From NCBI GenBank assembly GCA_963931925.1, contig OZ007567.1:81043186-81107185 (forward strand): DNA of 64,000 bases, read 5' to 3'. Positions 2,762 to 51,499 of the stretch are shown here, in pieces. The translations under genes were made by a program, and so were the position numbers. Each line of letters starts with the position of its first letter. Positions within the stretch are counted from its first letter, which is position 1. The stretch comes from Onchidella celtica (lineage: Eukaryota > Mollusca > Gastropoda > Systellommatophora > Onchidiidae). The notes below the pieces were generated by a model. The model ran no database searches. It was not told the origin of the DNA and saw only the letters and a program-made list of their open reading frames with translations.

Positions 2762-3836
2762 GAGAGAGAGAGAGAGAGAGAGAGGCAGACAGACAGACAG
2801 AAAGAGACAGATGCCTTCGAATCCCTTATTCCGCACTGTTTTCGTGTAGTCTGTGCTTTCCAAGACAGCGTGATATTTCTTTGTTTATCATACCCATATC
2901 TCCATAACTCTTGAGCTGTCAGTATCTGCAAGAAATATTCACCTTATATTTTGGCGCAGATTCAGACTACGTATCTGTGATTCCTTTTGATAATTTAATC
3001 AGCACAGGTAACCCACTGATATGGGTCGTTCAGTAGATGATGTTAACAACCACTCGTCATGACATTTATTGCTGGGTTTTAATGTAAACCCAGGTCTCGG
3101 CTCAGATACACAAATGTGGTATCTGAGTGCGGCCTGGGCTACTTACCTAAGGTGTAGATGTACTTGTTTGTTAACTCTGTCTAAAGTCAGCACCTTGCTG
3201 GATGTGTTAATCTGACAGAATACGTGCAGTACTAATATTACCGTTTACCTCTGATCATTCCATCCACAGTCACCTTGTCTCGGGGGGAAGGGTCTGGAGA
3301 AAGGCTTGGAGTTATCCTTTCTCAAATGATCTAACGTTTCAACCATTTACTTGATTTTTGGATCTGTTCGGCCACGGGAGACTGGAATGCTGTTTTCGGA
3401 CATTTATAATCGTAATATATGTCTTCATGTTATAATCAGCTTGTCTCTGAGGGCTGAGTATGGGCCTTGGTTGATCCCTTTTCCAAGGATTTTAAGTTTT
3501 TCAAATATTTACTTTGTTTTGGATCTATATGGTCACGCGGCCCTGGCATGTCTTATCTCCAATGTGCATTCCAATGTGCAACCAACATGCGGCTCGTTTA
3601 GATAGGATAAGTTACATTCTAAACATAAAAATGTGAAGAGCCCTAGGATGATGTTGGAGTTGTTGACAGTATATAAACGTATAAATGTGCACTAGCAATA
3701 AACGTTAAGCAACCCGAGAAGCCACGTAGATAAACAAAGGGACAAGGACAACATTAACCAGAGCCCTGGCAAGGTGAGCAATGTTTAGTTTATCATTTCT
3801 ACAATCAACATCAACTATTTCTTTCATTCAACTTAC
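1..3836. other. Non-coding stretch left of the last LRR exon
   Basis: No convincing exon is seen. The stretch probably belongs to an intron or the 3' side of the minus-strand LRR gene. It holds the CT/GA palindromic microsatellite at 2731-2784. A plus-strand reading frame is open from base 3 to 119 without a start codon and could be an exon fragment cut by the window edge, but nothing in it is recognisable. Confidence 0.5.
2731..2784. repeat. (CT)n-(GA)n palindromic microsatellite
   Basis: A run of CT repeats (about 2731-2761) is followed immediately by a run of GA repeats (2762-2784). The two halves are reverse complements and could fold into one long hairpin. A short (GACA)n tract follows directly. 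Confidence 0.9.
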
Positions 3837-4655: not shown

Positions 4656-4855
4656 NNNNNNNNNNNNNNNNNNNNNNNNNNNNNNNNNNNNNNNNNNNNN
4701 NNNNNNNNNNNNNNNNNNNNNNNNNNNNNNNNNNNNNNNNNNNNNNNNNNNNNNNNNNNNNNNNNNNNNNNNNNNNNNNNNNNNNNNNNNNNNNNNNNNN
4801 NNNNNNNNNNNNNNNNNNNNNNNNNNNNNNNNNNNNNNNNNNNNNNNNNNNNNNN
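4656..4855. other. Assembly gap of 200 N
   Basis: Two hundred undetermined bases, a round number typical of a scaffolding gap of unknown true length. Reading frames that cross it are meaningless. Confidence 1.
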
Positions 4856-35400: not shown

Positions 35401-36999
35401 AGCATTCTGATGACCAAACACTACTGGGTGTAATGTGTGACGTTTAAGCTAATTGTTATAAAGTTATCACTTAATTTTGATGCCGACAATAATGAGACAC
35501 CGCAGGCAACAAATGTATTTCAGTCATTGCAACATCACAACTACGATCACCAGGCTGAGGAGAAAAGATAACACAATAGATAAAAAAAACAAACAACTGC
35601 CATCAATCAATTTTTATAAGAGCGACTTGGAAAATTTACACTGAGAATCCAAAACAACCACAAAACCCGGAAACATACGGATTTCACCTAAATTCCTTAA
35701 AACTAGTGCAGTTTGGGAAGGAAGGGCGAATTTGAGGGTATGTATTCATGTTATGCTCAGCCAGGACGATTTTCAAACTTGACCTCTACCTTTTCCACTC
35801 CGGGTTTTAAAGTCTTAGATTTCCTGCCGGTATTTCTTTTTTCTCCCAATGTTATCTTTGGATGGTTTGGTGGTTCTTTCCGGTACTGCATTAAATTATC
35901 ACGGCGTGTAAAGCAATGCGCATCAAGATGCCGATGAAAGCATTATTTTTATTAGCCCGGGCATTGCCTTGTAGTTTATAATCTACAAACGTAAGCACCA
36001 ATATTATTCTTTTATCTAAATGCAGAAAATTGAGAATGCATATAATATAATAATGCACTTCTTATTTGATTTTGCTTTGATTTTCTTTTGTTGCAGCATT
36101 TTGATCGCAAAAATAAGCTGTGATAAGATTGGGTTATGTATTTATGAATCTATATTAGAATAAGGATTTAATAAACACAAAAACATATCCCAGTCACTGT
36201 TTAAATGCGTGGAATAATATTCATATATCGGGCAGCCTGTACCTGTTCATATCCTGCATGTTTTTTTTATATTTTTTAATATTTATTTACTTGTGTTTTA
36301 GCTTTGGCGTCACATAAATTCATGTAGCAGACACGGCCACTGACTCAGCATGACACGCGTCTAGCATGGACTGGACTGGTCAGGGCAGGTTATAGGTCAA
36401 GGGTCAGACGTGGAAGATAACAAGGGACAGGTGAACATGCTTAATTGTATGTAAATAATGAGGAGTGTGGCAAATTGTGAACAGCGATGATGGTTGGCAT
36501 AGTATCTACATAGCAAGGATGACTGGCGCTGGGGAAGGAAAGATAAAGGCTGAATGGAAGCGGATTTTAAAGAGAAAAAAAATGGGAAGGAAAAAAAAGA
36601 TAAAGAGAAGAAAGTAATGAAACCGTTAACCCTGTTGGGGTGCAAAATCCACAGAGAAATGTGTATGTCTCAACCTCTGTGATCTTTTATCGTAAACATT
36701 GGTGAGATTCTTGTCTTAAGAGTCTTCTTTTGTGTATACGGAAGAATAAAGCTCGCGTTTAATTAGCAGCATTCTCTTTGTATGAGTGAGTTAAGGGTGT
36801 GATTGAGTGTTTTTTGCAGTTTGAATATTGTATGTGTGTCTCTGTGTACATTATGTTGATGTTTGTGCATCGCTGTTCACTGTGTACGTAAAGCGACGAT
36901 ATGACAGTGTGTAGCATGCAAAACGCGTAAACATAGGTGAATATGGAGAAAAATGTACTACTGATTAGAAATCACACAAGCAGGCAAGACGGTCAGACC
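29404..36999. other. Non-coding stretch
   Basis: No convincing gene is present. It contains an AAG-rich tract (29751-29801) and a 15-base poly(G) at 30026-30040. Short open frames are not supported by splice borders or recognisable motifs. Confidence 0.5.
30026..30040. repeat. Poly(G) tract, 15 bases
   Basis: Fifteen consecutive G preceded by a T run. Confidence 0.9.
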
Positions 37000-37509
<510 letters not shown>

Positions 37510-40212
37510 TAGATAGATCATCGCTGGTCTACAATATCTGGCCAGATTAAACCTTGACATTGAAATGGCCACCCGATCAGAATACAGTTGCCGAGTAAAT
37601 ATTATTGAATTCGTACGAGTCAACGAGTCAGAAATTGACAATACAATAACATTCTTTTTCCTTGAGGGGGGGGGGGGGAGGCGTAGGGTGTGGGTGATAG
37701 ACTATAAAATATATAAGGATCCTCCTCACCCCCCCCCCCCTTCCTCAGAGTCAATGTTCCCCAAAGAGAAAACTGATGAGCCGACTAGAGGCTGACAGGC
37801 ACAGTTGCATTATAACTCAGAGAAATCGTTGACTCTGCTTTCAATCTTGTATGATAGAACGCTCTAACCAGCCAGCTATCAATTTAACAAGCGTAAATGC
37901 TGCTGTAAGGTCTTTCCTGAACCTTATTATTATGAGGTAGGCTTTCATTACACAGTGACACGTCGGCTTTTTGGGGGGGGGGGGGTGAGAGCAAGATAGA
38001 AAGAAAAATGAGAAAAACAGCGCGGGGTGAAGGAGGGAGGACAAAAAAAAAACAACTAGATTACACAAAAGAATGAGACAACCCTGCAAAACCTGAACTG
38101 CCAGATAGAGACGACGCACAATAAAGGACAGCCCGTATTGTAAAAAATTTTAATGAAGACGCAAGGTAAATGGCTCGGCGTGGAAGCCAATAGAAAAGTA
38201 TAAAAATGGATTCCCCAATATAATATTTAAACAATGTGCAAAGAGATTTGTTGTTTTGTAAATAATGCAAACCAAGATGGAGTACAAAGGAGGTTAACCT
38301 GTGGTCCCACATCTAATAATGGATCAACTCAAAACAGCAAGGTTTTTTTATACACATGAAAACTTGCCATTAAATAAGACATCCGTTAAACTTCGGATCT
38401 GAATAAGCTACTGACTTTATCATCTGCAGATAAGGGATTTCGTTATGGGTGACATCTTATTAACCCGGATTTCAGCCTTGCTATGTCCAATTTGCGGTTT
38501 GAAAGTGGTTTTATAAATAATTGTAGTTATCACGTCGTGTAGTTTGTTTCATCTTAATTGCACTGTTGCAGAAAATCTGGGAACTGTCATAAAGTTTGGA
38601 GAAGGCGTTTCTCTGCGCTGAGCAGATTGGAGATTTTCTCACTTTCTGCTATTTTATTCAATGACAATGTGAACAAGCCCGTCTTAACGTCGTCGTGGGC
38701 CCCTGAGCAAAGCAAAGGGCTGGTGCTCGCCCACTATGCAACTATTCAGGAATGTGCATGCATGGAGCGCCGTAAACCCTTGAGGCCGCGGGGCAGCTCG
38801 CCAAGTGTGTCCATGTGTTAAAACGGCTCTGGATGTGAGTAACCTTTTGCACCGCTCAATTTGAGCCCGTTGGCGAGTTTGAGTTTGAATCTTAGGAGAA
38901 TGCAGGTCGACACGACAACGGTTATATATCCGAGACACAGGATATCGAGACAGACCAATAAATTCATCATTTTCCGTCCGCCGGCTTGTGCCCGTACCAC
39001 CCATGTCAAAAATGCAACAATTCGCGCCACACCCCCTTCATAATTGAACGAAAAAGACTAGTACTACAGGGCCCTGTGAGTAGTACTCACCATGTTTATA
39101 CGCGCACAAGCTGTGGACTTAATTATAGTGAAAGAAGGAATGGTCCGTCTCGGTATTCTGTGTCTCGGGTTATAATAATATTAGGCAAGGAAAAAGCAAG
39201 ATGTAGACAAGAGTATAACCGAACGATAGGACAGAAGGAGAGAGCCTGCCAGACACGTTCATCAACTACCGGCACTCTATGGTGACATGGTCACGATAAA
39301 TTTCTCCGGAACCGGCCACAATAACTTTCTGGGAAACCGACCACAAAAACCTGGCCACAAATATCCCATAGCGAGTCTTTAGGCAGCACGGCTCAAATAG
39401 CCGCTACTTTCTTTTCCATTTTTTTTCTTTTTACTTTCCATTGTAAATTTACTCTAGTCTCTGCTGTGGTTTCGCTTTCCGTCGACGTGAAGATAACAAT
39501 GAAACGTAAAACTTGTTTAGGGAAACGACCGACAGCTCAATGCAGGACGCCCCTCTCATAGTTTATATTACAAGCACCCAAGCTTGCCAACTATGACAGA
39601 AGTGCTCACGGGAGAGACACTCTGGTGTTTATAACTCGTGTGCTGAAGATGTGAAAAGCAGGTGAGATATTTCGGTTTATTCAAACATTTTTGCGCTCTG
39701 TGTGCGGTAAACATGCTGCAAGATTGCTGATTGTTTCCGCAGGTGAAAACTATGCTTTATGGACTGAGATGACAGCAACCACGGCAACAAAATCACCACC
39801 GAAAAACAACAACATCCGTGACATCAAAATTAGACAGTAGTGGCATAATGAATATATGTTTGTAACTACATACATGTATAATACAACGACGCAGTGTCAG
39901 CAACAACAGCTACACAAGTCACTACAATAATGAGGGTAATGACAATAAATGACAGCAATAATATGGGTGATAAGTGCATGGTAGCCAAGTCGATAATGAT
40001 AACGGTGACGCTGGAGGTGATGACTTTGCTACTCCTTCTATTTGCATTTTGTATTTTTTGTATTTTTTTGTATTTTGTATACTTCTTTAGTCCCATCTGG
40101 GAAATTTGGCTTAGTGTCATTGCAGGGCAGTTATAACTGGAGCAGACACGTCGTACCTACAATGCTGGGCCGGTCGGAGGTTGGTTTTTTTCTGGGGGGG
40201 AGGGGGAGAGGG
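37510..40212. other. Non-coding stretch
   Basis: No exon is supported. It contains an inverted pair of homopolymers (G at 37666-37678, C at 37729-37740) and another G run at 37973-37985. Confidence 0.5.
37666..37740. repeat. Inverted poly(G)/poly(C) pair
   Basis: Thirteen G and, 50 bases later, twelve C, flanked by partly complementary CTTGAG and CCTCAG. It could form a long G:C hairpin. Its origin is unknown; it may be the remains of a short inverted-repeat element. Confidence 0.6.
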
Positions 40213-43261: not shown

Positions 43262-43266
43262 ATTAG
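43262..43266. repeat. 5-bp target site duplication of the retrotransposon, left
   Basis: ATTAG, matched by 51495-51499 directly outside the other LTR. Confidence 0.95.
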
Positions 43267-44582
43267 TGTCAGGGTTAGGACTAGAAGTGTCGTGCTGGGT
43301 CACGGCGTGTTTATTTCATGGTCTCGTTGATTTTAGCCAGTGCAAATGTCCTTGAACTATTCTCGTGGACAGTTTGTTTTTGTAACGCTTTTTCTTAGAG
43401 ATGGAAAGAAAGTGGGGCAAGATAGAATAAATGGATGGGTTAGCAGTGACGGTGCAGTTCTCGACCCCGTGATTTTGATGAATTCTAACAGGGAAGAGAA
43501 GGGGTGAATAAAAGGGAAATAGTAAATTCGTACATAAAACGTAGAGGGTTGGAGACTTTAGTAAGGGTTTTGATATGTTAATTTGACCTTGGCTGTTACT
43601 AGTGCAAGGCCGTGACCGATTTCCATGCAGAATCTATTAATACTACGAGCTGAGCTCGAAATGGATGCACCAATCAAATTTGGGCAGTTGGCTGGGGATT
43701 TGCAGATGGCCGCGCAGGATATAAGCGGAGCCATCCCTATGTTTCACTACTCCATGCAGAAATATCCTTCTGTGAAGGCAGTCGGCGTGATTCAGCCAGA
43801 GAGAATCAGAAGATTGTTATAGTCATGTCTATGACCTTGATAGACATTGGAATGAGACCATATGCTGCCCACAAATTATCTACTGCTATTATCTCCGGCT
43901 CCCTGATCTCGTATCAGGGACCAAGTGTAAGTGTTTGTCTATTGATTCGACGATGAACGTGAAGCTGACCTTAAATTCTCCAGTAGAAGTGCTACCGAAG
44001 AATGCAAGACTACAATGTATTTTAACTTGCAACTAGATCTAGCATGAATGTCTGGTATACACATTTGTAAATTGAAATTGATGTGTCTGGATGAGGCTGG
44101 GGATTGCCAGCCCATCCTAGAGTAGATCTAGATCTAACTTAACTACGTCAGTTGTATTGACGAGTTTGATCCTTTATCAGCGGTAGGCACAAATAACTGA
44201 GTTAACATTGTCGTCTGAGACATTAGAATATTATTTGTTAGATAGTAGGCAGACTATATCTGGAAGATAGATAAGTAATAATTAAATTGTGAATGAGTCA
44301 GAATGATATAATCTTTTAGGAATCTAGAGGAGACTTCTAGTGATATATTATTGAATATTCATTTGATGCTGCTGATGTTGTCCTTTTAATATGTAAGAGC
44401 TAGACGAAATTTGTTAGGGATTTTAAAGTAAATAAATTTGTGGCCCTGCAGGTCCTTGATAAAACTTATTCGAATTGTTATTAGTATATGTGGCATGGTA
44501 TGGAAGGATAATTCCTAAAAACCTCTCGATATTTTAAATGCAGTCGTAACACCAATAATTCCATATAACCCAACTCGTAACA
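43267..44582 (+). repeat. 5' LTR, 1316 bp
   Basis: It starts TGTCAGGGTT and ends CTCGTAACA (TG...CA). By eye it matches the 3' LTR at every position but 43508 (A here, G at 50420). An AATAAA lies at 44431-44436 and another at 43507-43512; the second is the one changed in the 3' LTR. No clear TATA box was picked out. Confidence 0.97.
43625..43822 (+). CDS. 65-codon open frame inside the 5' LTR
   Basis: An ATG-initiated frame of 65 codons, with a composition like a normal protein (peptide includes FGQLAGDLQMAAQDISGAI). The same frame occurs at 50537-50734 because the LTRs are duplicates, so its conservation carries no evidence of selection. I do not recognise it. It may be chance. Confidence 0.2.
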   Translation: MQNLLILRAELEMDAPIKFGQLAGDLQMAAQDISGAIPMFHYSMQKYPSVKAVGVIQPERIRRLL

Positions 44583-44583
44583 C

Positions 44584-44601
44584 TGGAGAGGGACTCTTAA
44601 A
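44584..44601 (+). promoter_or_regulatory. Candidate primer binding site
   Basis: TGGAGAGGGACTC begins two bases after the LTR end. TGG is complementary to the CCA end of a tRNA. The tRNA could not be identified by eye. Confidence 0.55.
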
Positions 44602-45963
44602 GAACTTAAATAACGCCATGCCATAGGTAAATTATTTTAAAATCTATTGTATTTTTATTCCATTATTTAATATTGTACTGTTGTAACATTGTGTTTTCAG
44701 GTCCTTTTTATTATAGATTTTAGGCAATTTGTATTAATTTAACATTTTGTTTCAATTTCATATGGTGAACTCAACATCCCATTGACCCGACGACACCGGC
44801 GAGGGACACCTTTCACCGTACAGATCTACCTGAGACAGAAACGCATTTTTTGGGCTTGGAGCTATGGTTTGAGGATATTTACCATCTGAATTCCTCAAAA
44901 ACAAAGTTAAGTGAACCATCTATTAACAGTCTTGAGGAGGGCGACGTACTTTCCGCTCTGTGTGTTTCCAGGCTATTTTACCATTTACTATATGTTTAGT
45001 TTAAGAGCGGGAGGTTGGTTGGGGTCATAGTTTAGCATATCTTCTTTGCCATTTCGAAGGATATTGGAGTGCCTTGGTGGCTATTGATAACTCGGGGGGA
45101 TTTGCTTCACTGTGAATAGTTCTTTTAGGGATCCATTATTCGTATAGATTGTGGCGTTTCTTTTCCTTCCTTACATTTTTTAGGAAGATGTCTCTCCTGT
45201 CTTCTTCTTAAACTTTCTGTAATATAAGTTAGGACTTGTAGGGTCTGTTATCGTTCGTATTACTTGTCAGTATAGCGTCTTGTTAATTGTATTTCTTTTT
45301 GCTTCCTTATAAACTTTAAACTACTATACTAACATTGTTATGTTTACAATATATGCCTGAGGTGTTTCACGTGCTAAAACCACGTTGAATTGTAATCTGG
45401 TATTGACATATGAGAGAGAGAGAGATATAATAAATTTTTGTTCACGTGCTAATTTCACGTTGAATATAGAGAGAATAATTTTGCAGTGGCAACAGAATAC
45501 ACTGCGTGTGCGCGTTTTAAGAAGAGAGAAATATTTCAAATTTGTCGCGTTGAGAGAGAGATATAATTTTGATTCGTCGCATTGAGAGAGCGATTCATTT
45601 TTCACAGTGATAACAGAGGACACTGGTTCGTCGCGTTGAGAGAGACATAAATTTTTGAGAGTGATCACTCAAGACACTAATTTATCGCATTAAAGGCGAT
45701 ATATATATTTTATTGCAGTGGGAGCAACGGATAGACGGCACTGCTTTACTAGAATTCATATTCAGAGAGAGAAAGATAAAGTTTTTGCAGTGGAAGACAC
45801 ACTGCCTGCAATTTACAGAGAGAGATAGAACGTTCTTTTCGCGAAGCAGTGCTAACGTAAGACACTGAATTAATATTAACAGAGAATAACTGTTATAAAT
45901 AATATAATTGATACCGCGATATACAGTAGGTAAATACTTACTAATTACAGACTTTAACATATC
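44602..45963 (+). other. Long untranslated leader with repeated hairpins
   Basis: About 1.4 kb between the primer site and the gag start with no substantial frame. Its distal 500 bases contain a tandem series of AGAGAGA tracts alternating with CAGTG...CACTG stem motifs (see the separate entry). Such a leader probably carries packaging or dimerisation signals and may affect translation. Confidence 0.6.
45483..45867 (+). repeat. Serial CAGTG/CACTG hairpins in the retrotransposon leader
   Basis: Paired stem motifs occur at 45483-45488/45500-45505, 45605-45609/45621-45625, 45715-45720/45739-45744, 45787-45792/45800-45805 and 45846-45851/45863-45867. Three use a full GCAGTG/CACTGC stem. A perfect 12-base palindrome GAGTGATCACTC (45659-45670) takes the same position in another unit. 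Units recur about every 60-70 bases and are separated by AGAGAGA(T)ATAA-type spacers. The stems are kept while loops and spacers vary, which suggests RNA structure; function is inference. Confidence 0.65.
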
Positions 45964-48900
45964 ATGGCCGAGTTTCTTAAATACATTGAATCTGCCAAAG
46001 TTCTGGGTATACCAGAAGAAGAACGCGCCTCGTGGTGCGAACGACAATTACAACAAGACCGAGATCGTGAGGATCGAAAAGAAGCAAGAGAAAGAGAAAG
46101 AGAAAAAGAAGTAGAGAGAGAAAAGGAAAGAGAAAGAGAAAGAGAAAAAGAAGAAAGAGAAAGAGAAAAAGAAAGAGAGAGAGAAAAGGAAAGGCAGCAT
46201 GAACTCGCAATAAAGAAGTTAGAGCGAGAATCGCTTGTGACCCCCACTACTGCCACCAATACTTATGCTACCAAACCAAAGCTGCCGACGTTTAATGAAA
46301 AACTCGACCGGATCGACGCATATTTACATCGGTTCGAGCTACACGCTAAATGCGTCGGATGGCAGCAGGCGATGTACAGTTCATGCCTGTCTAATTTACT
46401 AACAGGTAAGGCTCTAGAAGTATTTCATAGCCTCAAAGTAGAGGATGCCAACGACTATGACAAGCTTAAAACAGCACTGCTTAAGCGATTCCAGCATACC
46501 GAGGATGGCTTTCATCAGAGATTTCGCTCATGTAAACCTGAGCCATCTGAAAATTTCTCAACTTATGTGAATCGGCTGAAACATTACTTAGATCGCTGGA
46601 TCGAGCTCGCGAACGTGACTACCGGAAATTATTCCCAACTTTATGATTTGGTCTTAAAAGACCAAATCTATACGGCATGTCATTCCGATTTGGTTGCCCA
46701 CCTTAAAGAGAGATCACCGACATCCTCCGAAGAAATCACATCGTGCGCGGAACGTTATGCGTCCGCCCACCCAAATCGTCCTTTGGCAAAGCCTTCAACT
46801 ACAGCACCGTGTTATGCCAACGTGGGCAAAGGAGCGCCAACCGGACACGATCGTTCAAGGCCGACTCGTCGTCAGGCCCCAAATCCGCGCTCTCAATCAG
46901 AGCCACCTTTTTTTAGACAGAGGGATTTCCCGAATCGAAGTAATGTATCCCCGCGTCGAGGATACCAGACTTACTCTTTTTACGAGCCTCGCCCATATTA
47001 TCGTGGCAACTATCCAGGCCAACAATATAACCGGCCTCAGGGACCGCCGCGACGAGTGCATTTTGATAATAATCATGATTATGATAGACCGCAGAGTCTT
47101 CCTTATCGTGGAAACGATCCTAATCGTATTATGTGTTTTAGGTGTAATAGGGTAGGTCACATACAAAAATTTTGTAACGTGAAAATGGAATCAACAAATG
47201 CCTGCTCGGTTAAATCTACACCTTATGAGACTGACGGTCATTCTGAACCTTCATCGCAATCAAAGGCTACTCCAGTCATGTCCGCCCTACATGAACTGGG
47301 TGAATTAACATTTTACCAGGGCCGCGTGAACGCCATTCGCGCTTCTGTTCTACGTGACTCCGGATGCACGACTATCGGCGTTCGACAGTCACTAGTCCGT
47401 CCAACACAATTTTTGGACAAGGATGTAACTTGTATTACTTTTGGCGGATCTGTAGAGCGATTCCGTCTTGCAGAAGTTTATATTGATACACCTTTTCTCA
47501 CAGGTATTGTTACCGCATGTGTACTGCCTAATCCGGTGGCTGATATAATCATAGGGAATGTACCTCAAGTAAATAAGTTTCCTATCGGTAACTTGGAAAT
47601 TTGGACTGAGGATGAGAGTGTTGCTTGTGCGACAACACGCCTACAATCGAGTCGACGAGCAGACAGTCCATTGAGTAATCCTACTATTGAAGTGAACATA
47701 ACGTCTAGTGCATTTCATGATGAGCAACATTCAGATCCCACATTGAAACATTTGTTTGCTAAGGTTGATCCTACCGCGCTGGATACCTCTAAGTTTCTTA
47801 TTAAGGATGACTTATTATATCGTAATTTTCGGAGTAAGCGAGAGGCCGTTATGCAGCTTGTAGTACCGAGATCTTTTCGTCGCGACATTATTCGTCTCGC
47901 GCATGACACTTCCTTGGCGGGTCACCAAGGAAAGGCCAGAACTAAGTCTCGAATACTATCGCAATTTTTTTGGCCCAGTATTTACGCAGATGTAAACCGG
48001 TTCGTATCAACATGTGACGTATGTCAGAGACGTACTCCTAAAGGAAGAGCATCGCGGGCTCCTCTGCAGGAGATGCCTATGGTCTCCAGACCATTTGAGC
48101 GCGTTGCCGTAGATATAGTTGGGCCCCTACACAAGTCAGACAGAGGACATCGTTTTATACTTTCTGTCATTGACTACGCAACCCGTTGGCCAGAGGCCAT
48201 TCCGCTAAAAGACATTTCAGCCGATCATGTGGCTGAGGCCCTTATTACCATTTTTTCGCGTCTTGGGTTTCCGGTTGAAATTCTATCGGACAGAGGTCCA
48301 CAGTTTACCTCTGAGCTTTTTAAGAAAGTCTTGGAATTGGTCGGGATTAAACAAAGATTGACATCTCCATACCACCCACAGTCTAATGGCTGCTGTGAAC
48401 GGTGGAATGCTACCATGAAAACTATGCTTGCGCGAGTTTCCGCCGACAAGCCGAGTGATTGGGATCGACAACTCCCCGCTATTCTTTTTGCATACCGAGA
48501 ACTACCGAACGCATCGACGGGTTTTTCCCCCTTCGAATTATTGTATGGTCGTAAGCCGCGTGGTCCAATGGCCATACTCCATGATTTATTCGCCGGATCA
48601 GACACCGACGACAACGATACGCGGTCTGCATATCAATACGTTGTAGACTTGCGGCATCGAATTCTTAACGCATGTCAGCTCGCACAAAAATCTTCAGCTG
48701 CGCATGCTAGTCTTTATGAAACCAATTGGTCGGGCCACCTCGCAGCCCTACGACAAGTTTTTATTGCTCTTCGTCGAGCTGGCCTTACGGCGAAACCCAG
48801 TAAGGTGTTTTTAGGATATAATGAAATTAATTTTCTGGGCCATACAATTGCCCACGGCGTTCAGACTCCTGATGACAAGAAGATAACTACCATCTTAAAG

Positions 48901-49497
48901 CTCCAACCCCCTCGAACTAAGAAAGAAGTTCGTAGTTTATTGGGCTTTCTTAACTATTATAGGAAATTCATTCCAAATTTTTCTTCGCTTACAGCTCCGT
49001 TGTCGGACCTCACAAGAAAGAATTTTGCTAATAAAGTGAAATGGACAACCGAATGTGCTGATACACTTCGTACCGTTCAACAACTGTTTTCCACTTCCCC
49101 CATTCTCATACTGCCAGATATAAACCAAATATTTATTGTCCGCACTGATGCGTCGGACAAGGGATTGGGAGCTGTGTTATTACAGGAACGAGACGATACC
49201 TTGCGGCCATGTCTATACGCCAGCCGCAAGTTGCTAGATAGGGAATGCCGCTATGCAATTATCGAGCGAGAGTGCCTCGCTATCATTTTTGCTGTAAACG
49301 CATTTTCGCGATATCTACTCATGTCCGAGTTTATAATTGAAACGGACCATCGTCCGTTGTTATTCTTGAAGGCTAACAGGGCTAAAAATGCTCGATTAAC
49401 GAGGTGGAGTCTTGCACTCCAGGAATACCGGTTTGTTATCCGGGCTATCCCTGGCGGTGACAATTCCCAAGCTGATATTTTGTCACGTCTAATTTAG
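45964..49497 (+). CDS. gag-pol: Fused Gag-Pol polyprotein, 1177 aa, RT catalytic part missing
   Basis: Residues 31-90 are a charged Arg/Glu/Lys coiled coil, and about 105-275 the retrotransposon Gag domain. A CX2CX4HX4C zinc knuckle (C391, C394, H399, C404) is the nucleic-acid binding part. The aspartic protease shows DSG at 465-467 and DIIIGN at 527-532. Integrase has the H647/H654/C684/C687 zinc site and the D717, D776, E812 triad with the usual 35 residues between the last two. After about residue 918 the sequence jumps to NWSGHLAALRQVF, the segment just after the YxDD box of RT. The RT thumb follows, then RNase H with D1062, E1103, D1128 and D1171. RT fingers, palm and YxDD, and the integrase tail, are absent. 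There is no frameshift between gag and pol. The start ATG sits in ATCATGG. Confidence 0.93.
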   Translation: MAEFLKYIESAKVLGIPEEERASWCERQLQQDRDREDRKEAREREREKEVEREKEREREREKEEREREKEREREKERQHELAIKKLERESLVTPTTATNTYATKPKLPTFNEKLDRIDAYLHRFELHAKCVGWQQAMYSSCLSNLLTGKALEVFHSLKVEDANDYDKLKTALLKRFQHTEDGFHQRFRSCKPEPSENFSTYVNRLKHYLDRWIELANVTTGNYSQLYDLVLKDQIYTACHSDLVAHLKERSPTSSEEITSCAERYASAHPNRPLAKPSTTAPCYANVGKGAPTGHDRSRPTRRQAPNPRSQSEPPFFRQRDFPNRSNVSPRRGYQTYSFYEPRPYYRGNYPGQQYNRPQGPPRRVHFDNNHDYDRPQSLPYRGNDPNRIMCFRCNRVGHIQKFCNVKMESTNACSVKSTPYETDGHSEPSSQSKATPVMSALHELGELTFYQGRVNAIRASVLRDSGCTTIGVRQSLVRPTQFLDKDVTCITFGGSVERFRLAEVYIDTPFLTGIVTACVLPNPVADIIIGNVPQVNKFPIGNLEIWTEDESVACATTRLQSSRRADSPLSNPTIEVNITSSAFHDEQHSDPTLKHLFAKVDPTALDTSKFLIKDDLLYRNFRSKREAVMQLVVPRSFRRDIIRLAHDTSLAGHQGKARTKSRILSQFFWPSIYADVNRFVSTCDVCQRRTPKGRASRAPLQEMPMVSRPFERVAVDIVGPLHKSDRGHRFILSVIDYATRWPEAIPLKDISADHVAEALITIFSRLGFPVEILSDRGPQFTSELFKKVLELVGIKQRLTSPYHPQSNGCCERWNATMKTMLARVSADKPSDWDRQLPAILFAYRELPNASTGFSPFELLYGRKPRGPMAILHDLFAGSDTDDNDTRSAYQYVVDLRHRILNACQLAQKSSAAHASLYETNWSGHLAALRQVFIALRRAGLTAKPSKVFLGYNEINFLGHTIAHGVQTPDDKKITTILKLQPPRTKKEVRSLLGFLNYYRKFIPNFSSLTAPLSDLTRKNFANKVKWTTECADTLRTVQQLFSTSPILILPDINQIFIVRTDASDKGLGAVLLQERDDTLRPCLYASRKLLDRECRYAIIERECLAIIFAVNAFSRYLLMSEFIIETDHRPLLFLKANRAKNARLTRWSLALQEYRFVIRAIPGGDNSQADILSRLI

Positions 49498-50167
49498 TTT
49501 CCTATTAGAGAGTGTTGTGTCTTGTATTGGGGTTGGATAGTGCTTGTCCCCCTCAATTCTAGACGGTGGATGGATTCACATTTATCTTGTTCATTACTTT
49601 ATGAACCAGTTTTACAATCTTTTTTTTGTGAATATCCTCTTTCCACCAGCGTCATTCCGGACTGTGACCTGAACTTCTGACAAACCTGACGCCCTTGTCA
49701 GCGGGTCAATGAGATGGAGACATGGCAAACCAAGCTACCAGAGCTACTGCTGCCATTGGATACCACAGTATTTTAATTAACAATATATTGTGTGTGAATG
49801 TGTATATAAGCAGCAATTATGTGTGTTGACTAGATAATTATGAGCCTATTCCTTCAGTAAGGCTTCATTGTTTGATAATAGTTATACTTTAATTCAACAG
49901 TATACAGTGATATACTCATTCTTATTATAGATGTTCCTGAGAATTTTGATTGTGTGCAGTAAGAATGTTTCGATAGAATAGATTCTATAGAACGTGACAT
50001 CAATAATTGTATGCGTTTTGTCCATCCAATATGCACGTTCTTAGTTAGATTTTTTTTTTGGTCTCAAGCTTAAGGCTCGTTTTTCTACAGTAGTACTTAA
50101 GCCCCTACCACAATAACTTTGGGATTTCTTGGATCCTATCGTGTAAATTTTTATTAAAATTTTCACT
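49498..50167 (+). other. 3' untranslated region of the retrotransposon
   Basis: About 670 bases between the gag-pol stop and the polypurine tract. No envelope-like frame is present. Confidence 0.7.
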
Positions 50168-50178
50168 GGGGTGGGGGA
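50168..50178 (+). promoter_or_regulatory. Polypurine tract
   Basis: GGGGTGGGGGA lies directly against the 3' LTR, where plus-strand DNA synthesis would be primed. One T interrupts it. Confidence 0.8.
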
Positions 50179-51494
50179 TGTCAGGGTTAGGACTAGAAGT
50201 GTCGTGCTGGGTCACGGCGTGTTTATTTCATGGTCTCGTTGATTTTAGCCAGTGCAAATGTCCTTGAACTATTCTCGTGGACAGTTTGTTTTTGTAACGC
50301 TTTTTCTTAGAGATGGAAAGAAAGTGGGGCAAGATAGAATAAATGGATGGGTTAGCAGTGACGGTGCAGTTCTCGACCCCGTGATTTTGATGAATTCTAA
50401 CAGGGAAGAGAAGGGGTGAGTAAAAGGGAAATAGTAAATTCGTACATAAAACGTAGAGGGTTGGAGACTTTAGTAAGGGTTTTGATATGTTAATTTGACC
50501 TTGGCTGTTACTAGTGCAAGGCCGTGACCGATTTCCATGCAGAATCTATTAATACTACGAGCTGAGCTCGAAATGGATGCACCAATCAAATTTGGGCAGT
50601 TGGCTGGGGATTTGCAGATGGCCGCGCAGGATATAAGCGGAGCCATCCCTATGTTTCACTACTCCATGCAGAAATATCCTTCTGTGAAGGCAGTCGGCGT
50701 GATTCAGCCAGAGAGAATCAGAAGATTGTTATAGTCATGTCTATGACCTTGATAGACATTGGAATGAGACCATATGCTGCCCACAAATTATCTACTGCTA
50801 TTATCTCCGGCTCCCTGATCTCGTATCAGGGACCAAGTGTAAGTGTTTGTCTATTGATTCGACGATGAACGTGAAGCTGACCTTAAATTCTCCAGTAGAA
50901 GTGCTACCGAAGAATGCAAGACTACAATGTATTTTAACTTGCAACTAGATCTAGCATGAATGTCTGGTATACACATTTGTAAATTGAAATTGATGTGTCT
51001 GGATGAGGCTGGGGATTGCCAGCCCATCCTAGAGTAGATCTAGATCTAACTTAACTACGTCAGTTGTATTGACGAGTTTGATCCTTTATCAGCGGTAGGC
51101 ACAAATAACTGAGTTAACATTGTCGTCTGAGACATTAGAATATTATTTGTTAGATAGTAGGCAGACTATATCTGGAAGATAGATAAGTAATAATTAAATT
51201 GTGAATGAGTCAGAATGATATAATCTTTTAGGAATCTAGAGGAGACTTCTAGTGATATATTATTGAATATTCATTTGATGCTGCTGATGTTGTCCTTTTA
51301 ATATGTAAGAGCTAGACGAAATTTGTTAGGGATTTTAAAGTAAATAAATTTGTGGCCCTGCAGGTCCTTGATAAAACTTATTCGAATTGTTATTAGTATA
51401 TGTGGCATGGTATGGAAGGATAATTCCTAAAAACCTCTCGATATTTTAAATGCAGTCGTAACACCAATAATTCCATATAACCCAACTCGTAACA
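50179..51494 (+). repeat. 3' LTR, 1316 bp
   Basis: Same length and, by eye, the same sequence as the 5' LTR except G at 50420. AATAAA at 51343-51348 is the likely poly(A) signal. The 65-codon frame recurs at 50537-50734. Confidence 0.97.
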
Positions 51495-51499
51495 ATTAG
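51495..51499. repeat. 5-bp target site duplication of the retrotransposon, right
   Basis: ATTAG, identical to 43262-43266. Confidence 0.95.

What the first reader, a model, noticed from the sequence alone, without database searches (positions are those of the whole stretch)
48700..48750. In-frame loss of the RT catalytic region in a very young retrotransposon
The gag-pol frame passes without a stop or frameshift from the integrase C-terminal side (around residue 915) straight to the RT segment that normally follows YxDD. Fingers, palm and catalytic box are gone, yet Gag, protease, integrase, thumb and RNase H keep their key residues and the LTRs differ at only one of 1316 bases. Either the deletion occurred after insertion, or this is a non-autonomous lineage that supplies Gag, protease and integrase and borrows RT from a relative. 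The second would be an unusual parasitic or cooperative arrangement.
Basis: partly seen in the sequence, partly recalled or inferred. Interest (0 to 1): 0.78.

Follow-up and report, generated by a model that had tools for sequence, protein, structure and literature searches.

The report
One-off deletion in young retrotransposon
A young jumping gene has lost the heart of its copying enzyme through a 960-base deletion that was found in this copy only, while about a thousand relatives in the same genome look normal at that spot, so it is most likely an ordinary broken copy and not a new parasitic lineage.

Summary
The element (43267-51494; LTRs 1316 bp, 1 mismatch; target duplication ATTAG) has one open Gag-PR-IN-RT-RNase H frame that jumps from integrase to the RT thumb at 48713-48717. 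Four copies of the same genome that hold both sides have exactly 960 bp (320 codons) more, between two TTTAT repeats of which the window keeps one. Lost are the RT fingers and palm with YFDD and also the integrase C-terminal domain.

The 41-base junction, up to 3 mismatches, occurs once in the 1.14-Gb genome; the normal sequence at the right-hand break occurs at 1,080 places. The best other LTR scored is some 12-13 differences away (40 of 4,033 candidates scored). Integrase before RT is the known Gmr1 order, found in 120 of 120 listed relatives.

Best reading: a copy-specific deletion by a jump between short repeats, during the reverse transcription that made this copy or after insertion; these are not separated here. 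The open frame is expected at this age and by 1-in-3 chance. Ordinary; low interest.

The parts
43262..43266 (.). left target-site duplication ATTAG
43267..44582 (+). 5' LTR (TGTC...AACA), 1316 bp
   Evidence: 1 mismatch to the 3' LTR at 43508
44583..44602 (+). putative primer-binding site next to the LTR; tRNA not identified
   Evidence: sequence printed; assignment is inference from position
45964..49497 (+). single Gag-PR-IN-(RT C-terminal part)-RNase H open frame, 1177 residues
46507..46770 (+). Gag capsid-like region (SCAN PF02023)
   Evidence: residues 182-269, 27.2 bits against a cut-off of 27
47134..47175 (+). Gag CCHC zinc knuckle
   Evidence: motif by inspection (motif recalled), position
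47347..47382 (+). aspartic protease motif (RDSGCTT)
   Evidence: motif by inspection (motif recalled), position; no Pfam hit
47863..48378 (+). integrase zinc-binding domain (PF17921) and catalytic core (PF00665)
   Evidence: positions of the D, D, E motifs
48713..48717 (+). deletion junction: retained single copy of the 5-bp repeat TTTAT; 960 bp (integrase C-terminal domain, linker, RT fingers and palm with YFDD) missing here
   Evidence: one place in the own genome
48718..49041 (+). remaining RT C-terminal (thumb) part
   Evidence: match to Ty3 RT chain 4ol8_A from its residue 227
49042..49428 (+). RNase H (PF17919, PF17917)
   Evidence: residues 1027-1155
50168..50178 (+). polypurine-tract-like GGGGTGGGGGA
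   Evidence: sequence printed; assignment by position
50179..51494 (+). 3' LTR, 1316 bp
51495..51499 (.). right target-site duplication ATTAG

Best explanation
This is one defective copy of a large, recently active Ty3/gypsy family with Gmr1-like gene order. A single 960-bp deletion between two TTTAT repeats, by chance a multiple of three, removed the integrase C-terminal domain and the RT fingers and palm. Shown: size, repeat, frame, uniqueness of the junction in this assembly, abundance of places with the normal right-hand side, nearly identical LTRs. Inferred: the deletion arose by a repeat-guided jump, a little more likely (about 6 to 4, my judgement) by template switching during the reverse transcription that made this copy, with enzymes of an intact copy, than by microhomology end joining after insertion. 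In either case the copy encodes no catalytic RT and no complete integrase, and there is no sign that it has moved since.
For: Junction 41-mer with up to 3 mismatches: 1 place in 1.14 Gb, the window. Normal YFDD-side 35-mer with up to 2 mismatches: 1,080 places (549 forward, 531 reverse), control 0. In the 176-base junction query 39 of 40 scored places match only bases 71-176. 18 of 20 fetched copies hold all or nearly all of the 960 bases, 2 of these 18 interrupted by an insert; the other 2 hold 836 and 158 bases. Best foreign LTR loses 54 bits against self where the one mismatch of the 3' LTR costs 4. A repeat of 5 or more bases is expected in 0.6% of random deletions. The three other deletions looked at also break at short repeats: 9 bases (L022), 7 judged on the window copy (L020), 4 (L028), read by eye.
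Against: One assembly only; a lineage could exist in other individuals. The 35-mer shows the right-hand break and not the whole 960 bp, and its places include fragments. No reads, so misassembly at 48.71 kb is open. Only 40 of 4,033 LTR candidates and 40 of 2,289 junction candidates were scored. The LTRs leave little time for a deletion after insertion but do not forbid it.
Confidence: 0.88

Rival explanations
1. A non-autonomous lineage that gives Gag, protease and integrase and borrows RT from intact relatives.
For: Frame open; LTRs nearly identical and target duplication intact; relatives with a long open frame including the catalytic box exist, 6 of 20. Precedent: mouse IAP 1delta1, with a 1.9-kb gag-pol deletion and a fusion ORF, causes most new IAP insertion mutations (PMC6466679, passages seen).
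Against: One place with the junction in the genome; no close foreign LTR among those scored; the integrase C-terminal domain is lost too, so it would not supply a whole integrase. The open frame is expected anyway: about 1.3 substitutions since insertion and a 94% chance of no new stop (point changes only).
Confidence: 0.03
2. Deletion strictly after insertion by microhomology end joining at this locus (a sub-case of the best explanation).
For: 5-bp repeat; junction found once.
Against: Little time since insertion (1 of 1316 LTR differences); three other copies with nearly identical LTRs also carry repeat-flanked deletions (L020, L022, L028), which fits errors made while copying but does not prove it.
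Confidence: 0.37
3. Assembly artefact: a collapse between two family copies.
For: About a thousand closely similar places make collapse possible; no reads are held.
Against: An assembly jump has no reason to fall on two TTTAT repeats; flanks, target duplication and LTR pair agree with one insertion.
Confidence: 0.05

Closest known systems
Gmr1 clade of Ty3/gypsy LTR retrotransposons
   Same: Integrase lies before RT; this order is described for Gmr1 in PMC6238403 (passage), PMC8220671 (passages) and PMC2774666 (passage). 120 of 120 listed protein relatives have integrase, RT, RNase H in this order.
   Different: This copy lacks the integrase C-terminal domain and the RT catalytic part.
Mouse IAP 1delta1 elements
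   Same: Internal deletion that leaves a fusion ORF; fuller relatives in the genome (PMC6466679 and PMC7411935, passages).
   Different: 1delta1 is a mobile subtype responsible for most new IAP insertion mutations; the junction here exists once.
[quoted passage not shown]
   Same: Shorter, defective relatives beside competent ones (PMC10924933, passages).
   Different: D-type elements lack functional genes and form 85% of the full-length catalogue; here one copy with an open frame.
Ordinary defective LTR retrotransposon copies with deletions between short repeats (recalled)
   Same: 5-bp repeat, single locus, no descendants seen.
   Different: Happens to stay in frame and to remove the RT catalytic part.

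Membership tests
Gmr1-like Ty3/gypsy elements | Pol order protease-integrase-RT-RNase H | tested here: met
   Window: integrase 634-805, RNase H 1027-1155. Relatives: Pfam order for P0015 and P0012; order by blastp of three P0015 domains in 120 of 120
Gmr1-like Ty3/gypsy elements | RT and integrase group with Gmr1 references in a tree | not tested
   No named Gmr1 reference sequence was fetched
LTR retrotransposon | Two LTRs, target duplication, PBS and PPT positions | tested here: met
   the PBS tRNA was not identified
Autonomous LTR retrotransposon | RT with catalytic aspartates and a complete integrase | tested here: not met
   No RVT_1, no YxDD, no integrase C-terminal domain
Non-autonomous deletion lineage (IAP 1delta1 type) | Several insertions share the same deletion junction | tested here: not met
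   1 place in the genome with up to 3 mismatches
Non-autonomous deletion lineage (IAP 1delta1 type) | Mobilised in trans by intact relatives | not testable with these tools
   Needs an experiment; copies with a long open frame exist, 6 of 20

The most novel reading that the evidence does not exclude
The window shows a non-autonomous element at birth: the deletion was made in the copying round that gave this insertion, and the shortened element, still coding for Gag, protease, integrase core and RNase H among about a thousand relatives, is expressed and can be carried on by their enzymes, its fused product perhaps acting in cis as reported for IAP 1delta1.
Probability: 0.08. Interest if true: 0.45.

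Novelty: new member of a known kind. Interest (0 to 1): 0.2.

Why it matters
It also shows a family with about a thousand places and young LTRs in which different deletion copies (three besides this one were looked at) sit beside copies with long open frames. Non-autonomous lineages could arise in such a setting, and shared junctions could be counted.

Tried and rejected
RT elsewhere in the window: tblastn of 7 relatives gives no hit better than E 0.47 outside the element. Other family pieces in the window outside the element: none by blastn at E up to 0.1. tRNA and Rfam scans of the window: 0 matches. The exact 27-base junction in viral contigs: 0; confirmed relatives of the integrase-RNase H part in viral and prokaryote contigs: none (both may leave out the own genome). 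Same-species proteins: none recognisable. In one search (120 of 1,991 listed) the highest identity is 57% over about half of the queried region; (Gag-protease part, 67 found) the best-scoring hit has 41% over 85% and the highest identity is 45% over 37%. The third protein search was not used. Of 120 listed relatives, 7 lacked the first regular expression for the box; on the alignment 6 of these 7 have a variant box, and P0023, a gene model from Littorina saxatilis, lacks the piece with the box; P0063 also lacks part of the stretch; 118 of 120 hold at least 318 residues where the window holds 7. A first motif-based check of gene order gave 88 of 120 because the motifs were not matched in the right order or at all in the other 32; it was replaced by a domain blastp, 120 of 120. 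Literature: one search gave the Gmr1 papers; a six-term search on helpers and non-autonomous elements gave 0; two searches listed 3 papers each, of which three were opened for passages; on repeat-flanked deletions listed 4 and 5 papers, none used; passages of one of them (PMC12789967) did not support the point. Template switching at short repeats is recalled knowledge. Whether the deletions in L020 and L022 are shared by several copies stayed unanswered (service busy).

Full report
What is there. The element spans 43267-51494 with 1316-bp LTRs that differ at one base (43508) and a 5-bp target duplication ATTAG. One frame, 45964-49497, encodes 1177 residues with a SCAN-like Gag region, integrase zinc and core domains and RNase H; RVT_1 is missing. 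Comparison with solved structures places the remaining RT part from residue 227 of Ty3 RT onwards. tblastn of 7 relatives finds no RT elsewhere in the window (best E outside the element 0.47).

Gene order. Integrase stands before RT. Pfam shows integrase core, RVT_1, RNase H in this order in the full relatives P0015 and P0012, and a blastp with the three domains of P0015 shows the same order in 120 of 120 listed relatives. This is the order described for the Gmr1 clade (PMC6238403, PMC8220671 and PMC2774666, passages only). So the order is known, and the missing part is what differs: 118 of 120 relatives hold at least 318 residues in the aligned stretch where the window holds 7.

The deletion. 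The window lies in a genome of 1.14 Gb in 43 contigs. The four loci that hold both sides of the break (L002, L005, L007, L008, of seven foreign loci fetched) have exactly 960 bp more than the window, a multiple of three, and carry TTTAT at both ends; the window keeps one TTTAT at 48713-48717. The other three (L003, L004, L006) are rearranged upstream and could not be used for the size. In 200,000 random deletions on the same stretch a repeat of 5 or more bases appears in 0.6%. The missing 320 residues contain RVT_1 up to the catalytic box and the integrase C-terminal domain (PF22938; PF24626 just under its cut-off).

Lineage or single copy. The 176-base junction query gives 40 scored places of 2,289 candidates; only the window matches throughout, 39 match bases 71-176 alone. 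The 41-base junction pattern with up to 3 mismatches has one place, the window. The 35-base pattern of the normal sequence at the right-hand break has 1,080 places with up to 2 mismatches and 0 in the reversed control; it shows that break only, not the whole 960 bp, and includes fragments. The LTR search scored 40 of 4,033 candidates: the 3' LTR with its one mismatch loses 4 bits, the best foreign LTR loses 54, so it is some 12-13 differences away. No parent or daughter of this copy was seen. The lineage reading fails in this assembly.

The family. They were chosen by similarity at the right side of the junction, so they are biased towards copies that keep that side. All 20 have the RT thumb and RNase H part; 18 hold all or nearly all of the 960-bp stretch (in L024 and L025 interrupted by an insert), L012 holds 836 and L014 158 bases of it. 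One of the 20, L013, is the copy from which the 960-bp probe was taken (as L005). The 13 copies measured for both LTRs have identities from 99.27 to 99.93% over the longest aligned piece (L015 and L019 over a part only). The longest open stretch with both the catalytic box and the thumb motif is at least 1443 residues in 6 of 20. The family is young and copies with long open frames exist. Other deleted copies exist too: L022 (5' UTR to gag), L020 (5' UTR and gag start) and L028 (5' UTR), with repeats of 9, 7 (judged on the window copy) and 4 bases at the breaks, read by eye. Whether those junctions are shared is unknown, because the searches did not complete.

Why the open frame means little. 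One LTR difference implies about 1.3 substitutions in the frame since insertion and a 94% chance of no new stop (insertions and deletions not counted). A random deletion keeps the frame one time in three. No selection on the shortened protein is needed.

Mechanism. A jump between the two TTTAT repeats explains size and junction. It could have happened while RT copied the RNA (template switching at short repeats, recalled) or by microhomology end joining in the chromosome. The small age of the copy and the other repeat-flanked deletions lean to the first; neither is shown. In the first case the enzymes came from an intact copy for that one round, so a parasitic arrangement is not required.

Precedents. 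[quoted passage not shown]). Cattle ERVK[2-1-LTR] D-type elements outnumber competent ones (PMC10924933, passages). A true lineage here would have been a further case of a known kind. The single copy is ordinary.

Noticed in passing
L022 (oriented) 3524-3542; L020 3592-3635; L028 2838-2858: Other family copies carry internal deletions of 5' UTR or gag with short repeats at the breaks; in L022 the LTRs differ at 1 of 1199 bases and the target duplication CCAGG is intact. Whether these junctions are multi-copy could not be tested.
   Followed up: partly
L012 3561-5825; L018 718-2283 (oriented): Copies with an inverted gag-start plus 5' UTR segment whose one end lies exactly at the LTR/primer-site boundary, as if made by a copying or self-integration error.
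   Followed up: partly
G000:C3:66068650, 66075057, 66081464 and G000:C11:52553458, 52561339, 52569219: Evenly spaced family hits (6407 bp, and 7880-7881 bp between LTR starts) that look like tandem arrays of the element.
   Followed up: no
L011 1158-5690: A foreign insert of about 4.5 kb in a family copy near the same integrase site, with an AGCTGCGCATGCT stretch on either side.
   Followed up: no
window 36937-37550: Long tetranucleotide array (reads DRQT or SVCL repeats) that is open in several frames.
   Followed up: no
window 4656-4855: Run of 200 N.
   Followed up: no
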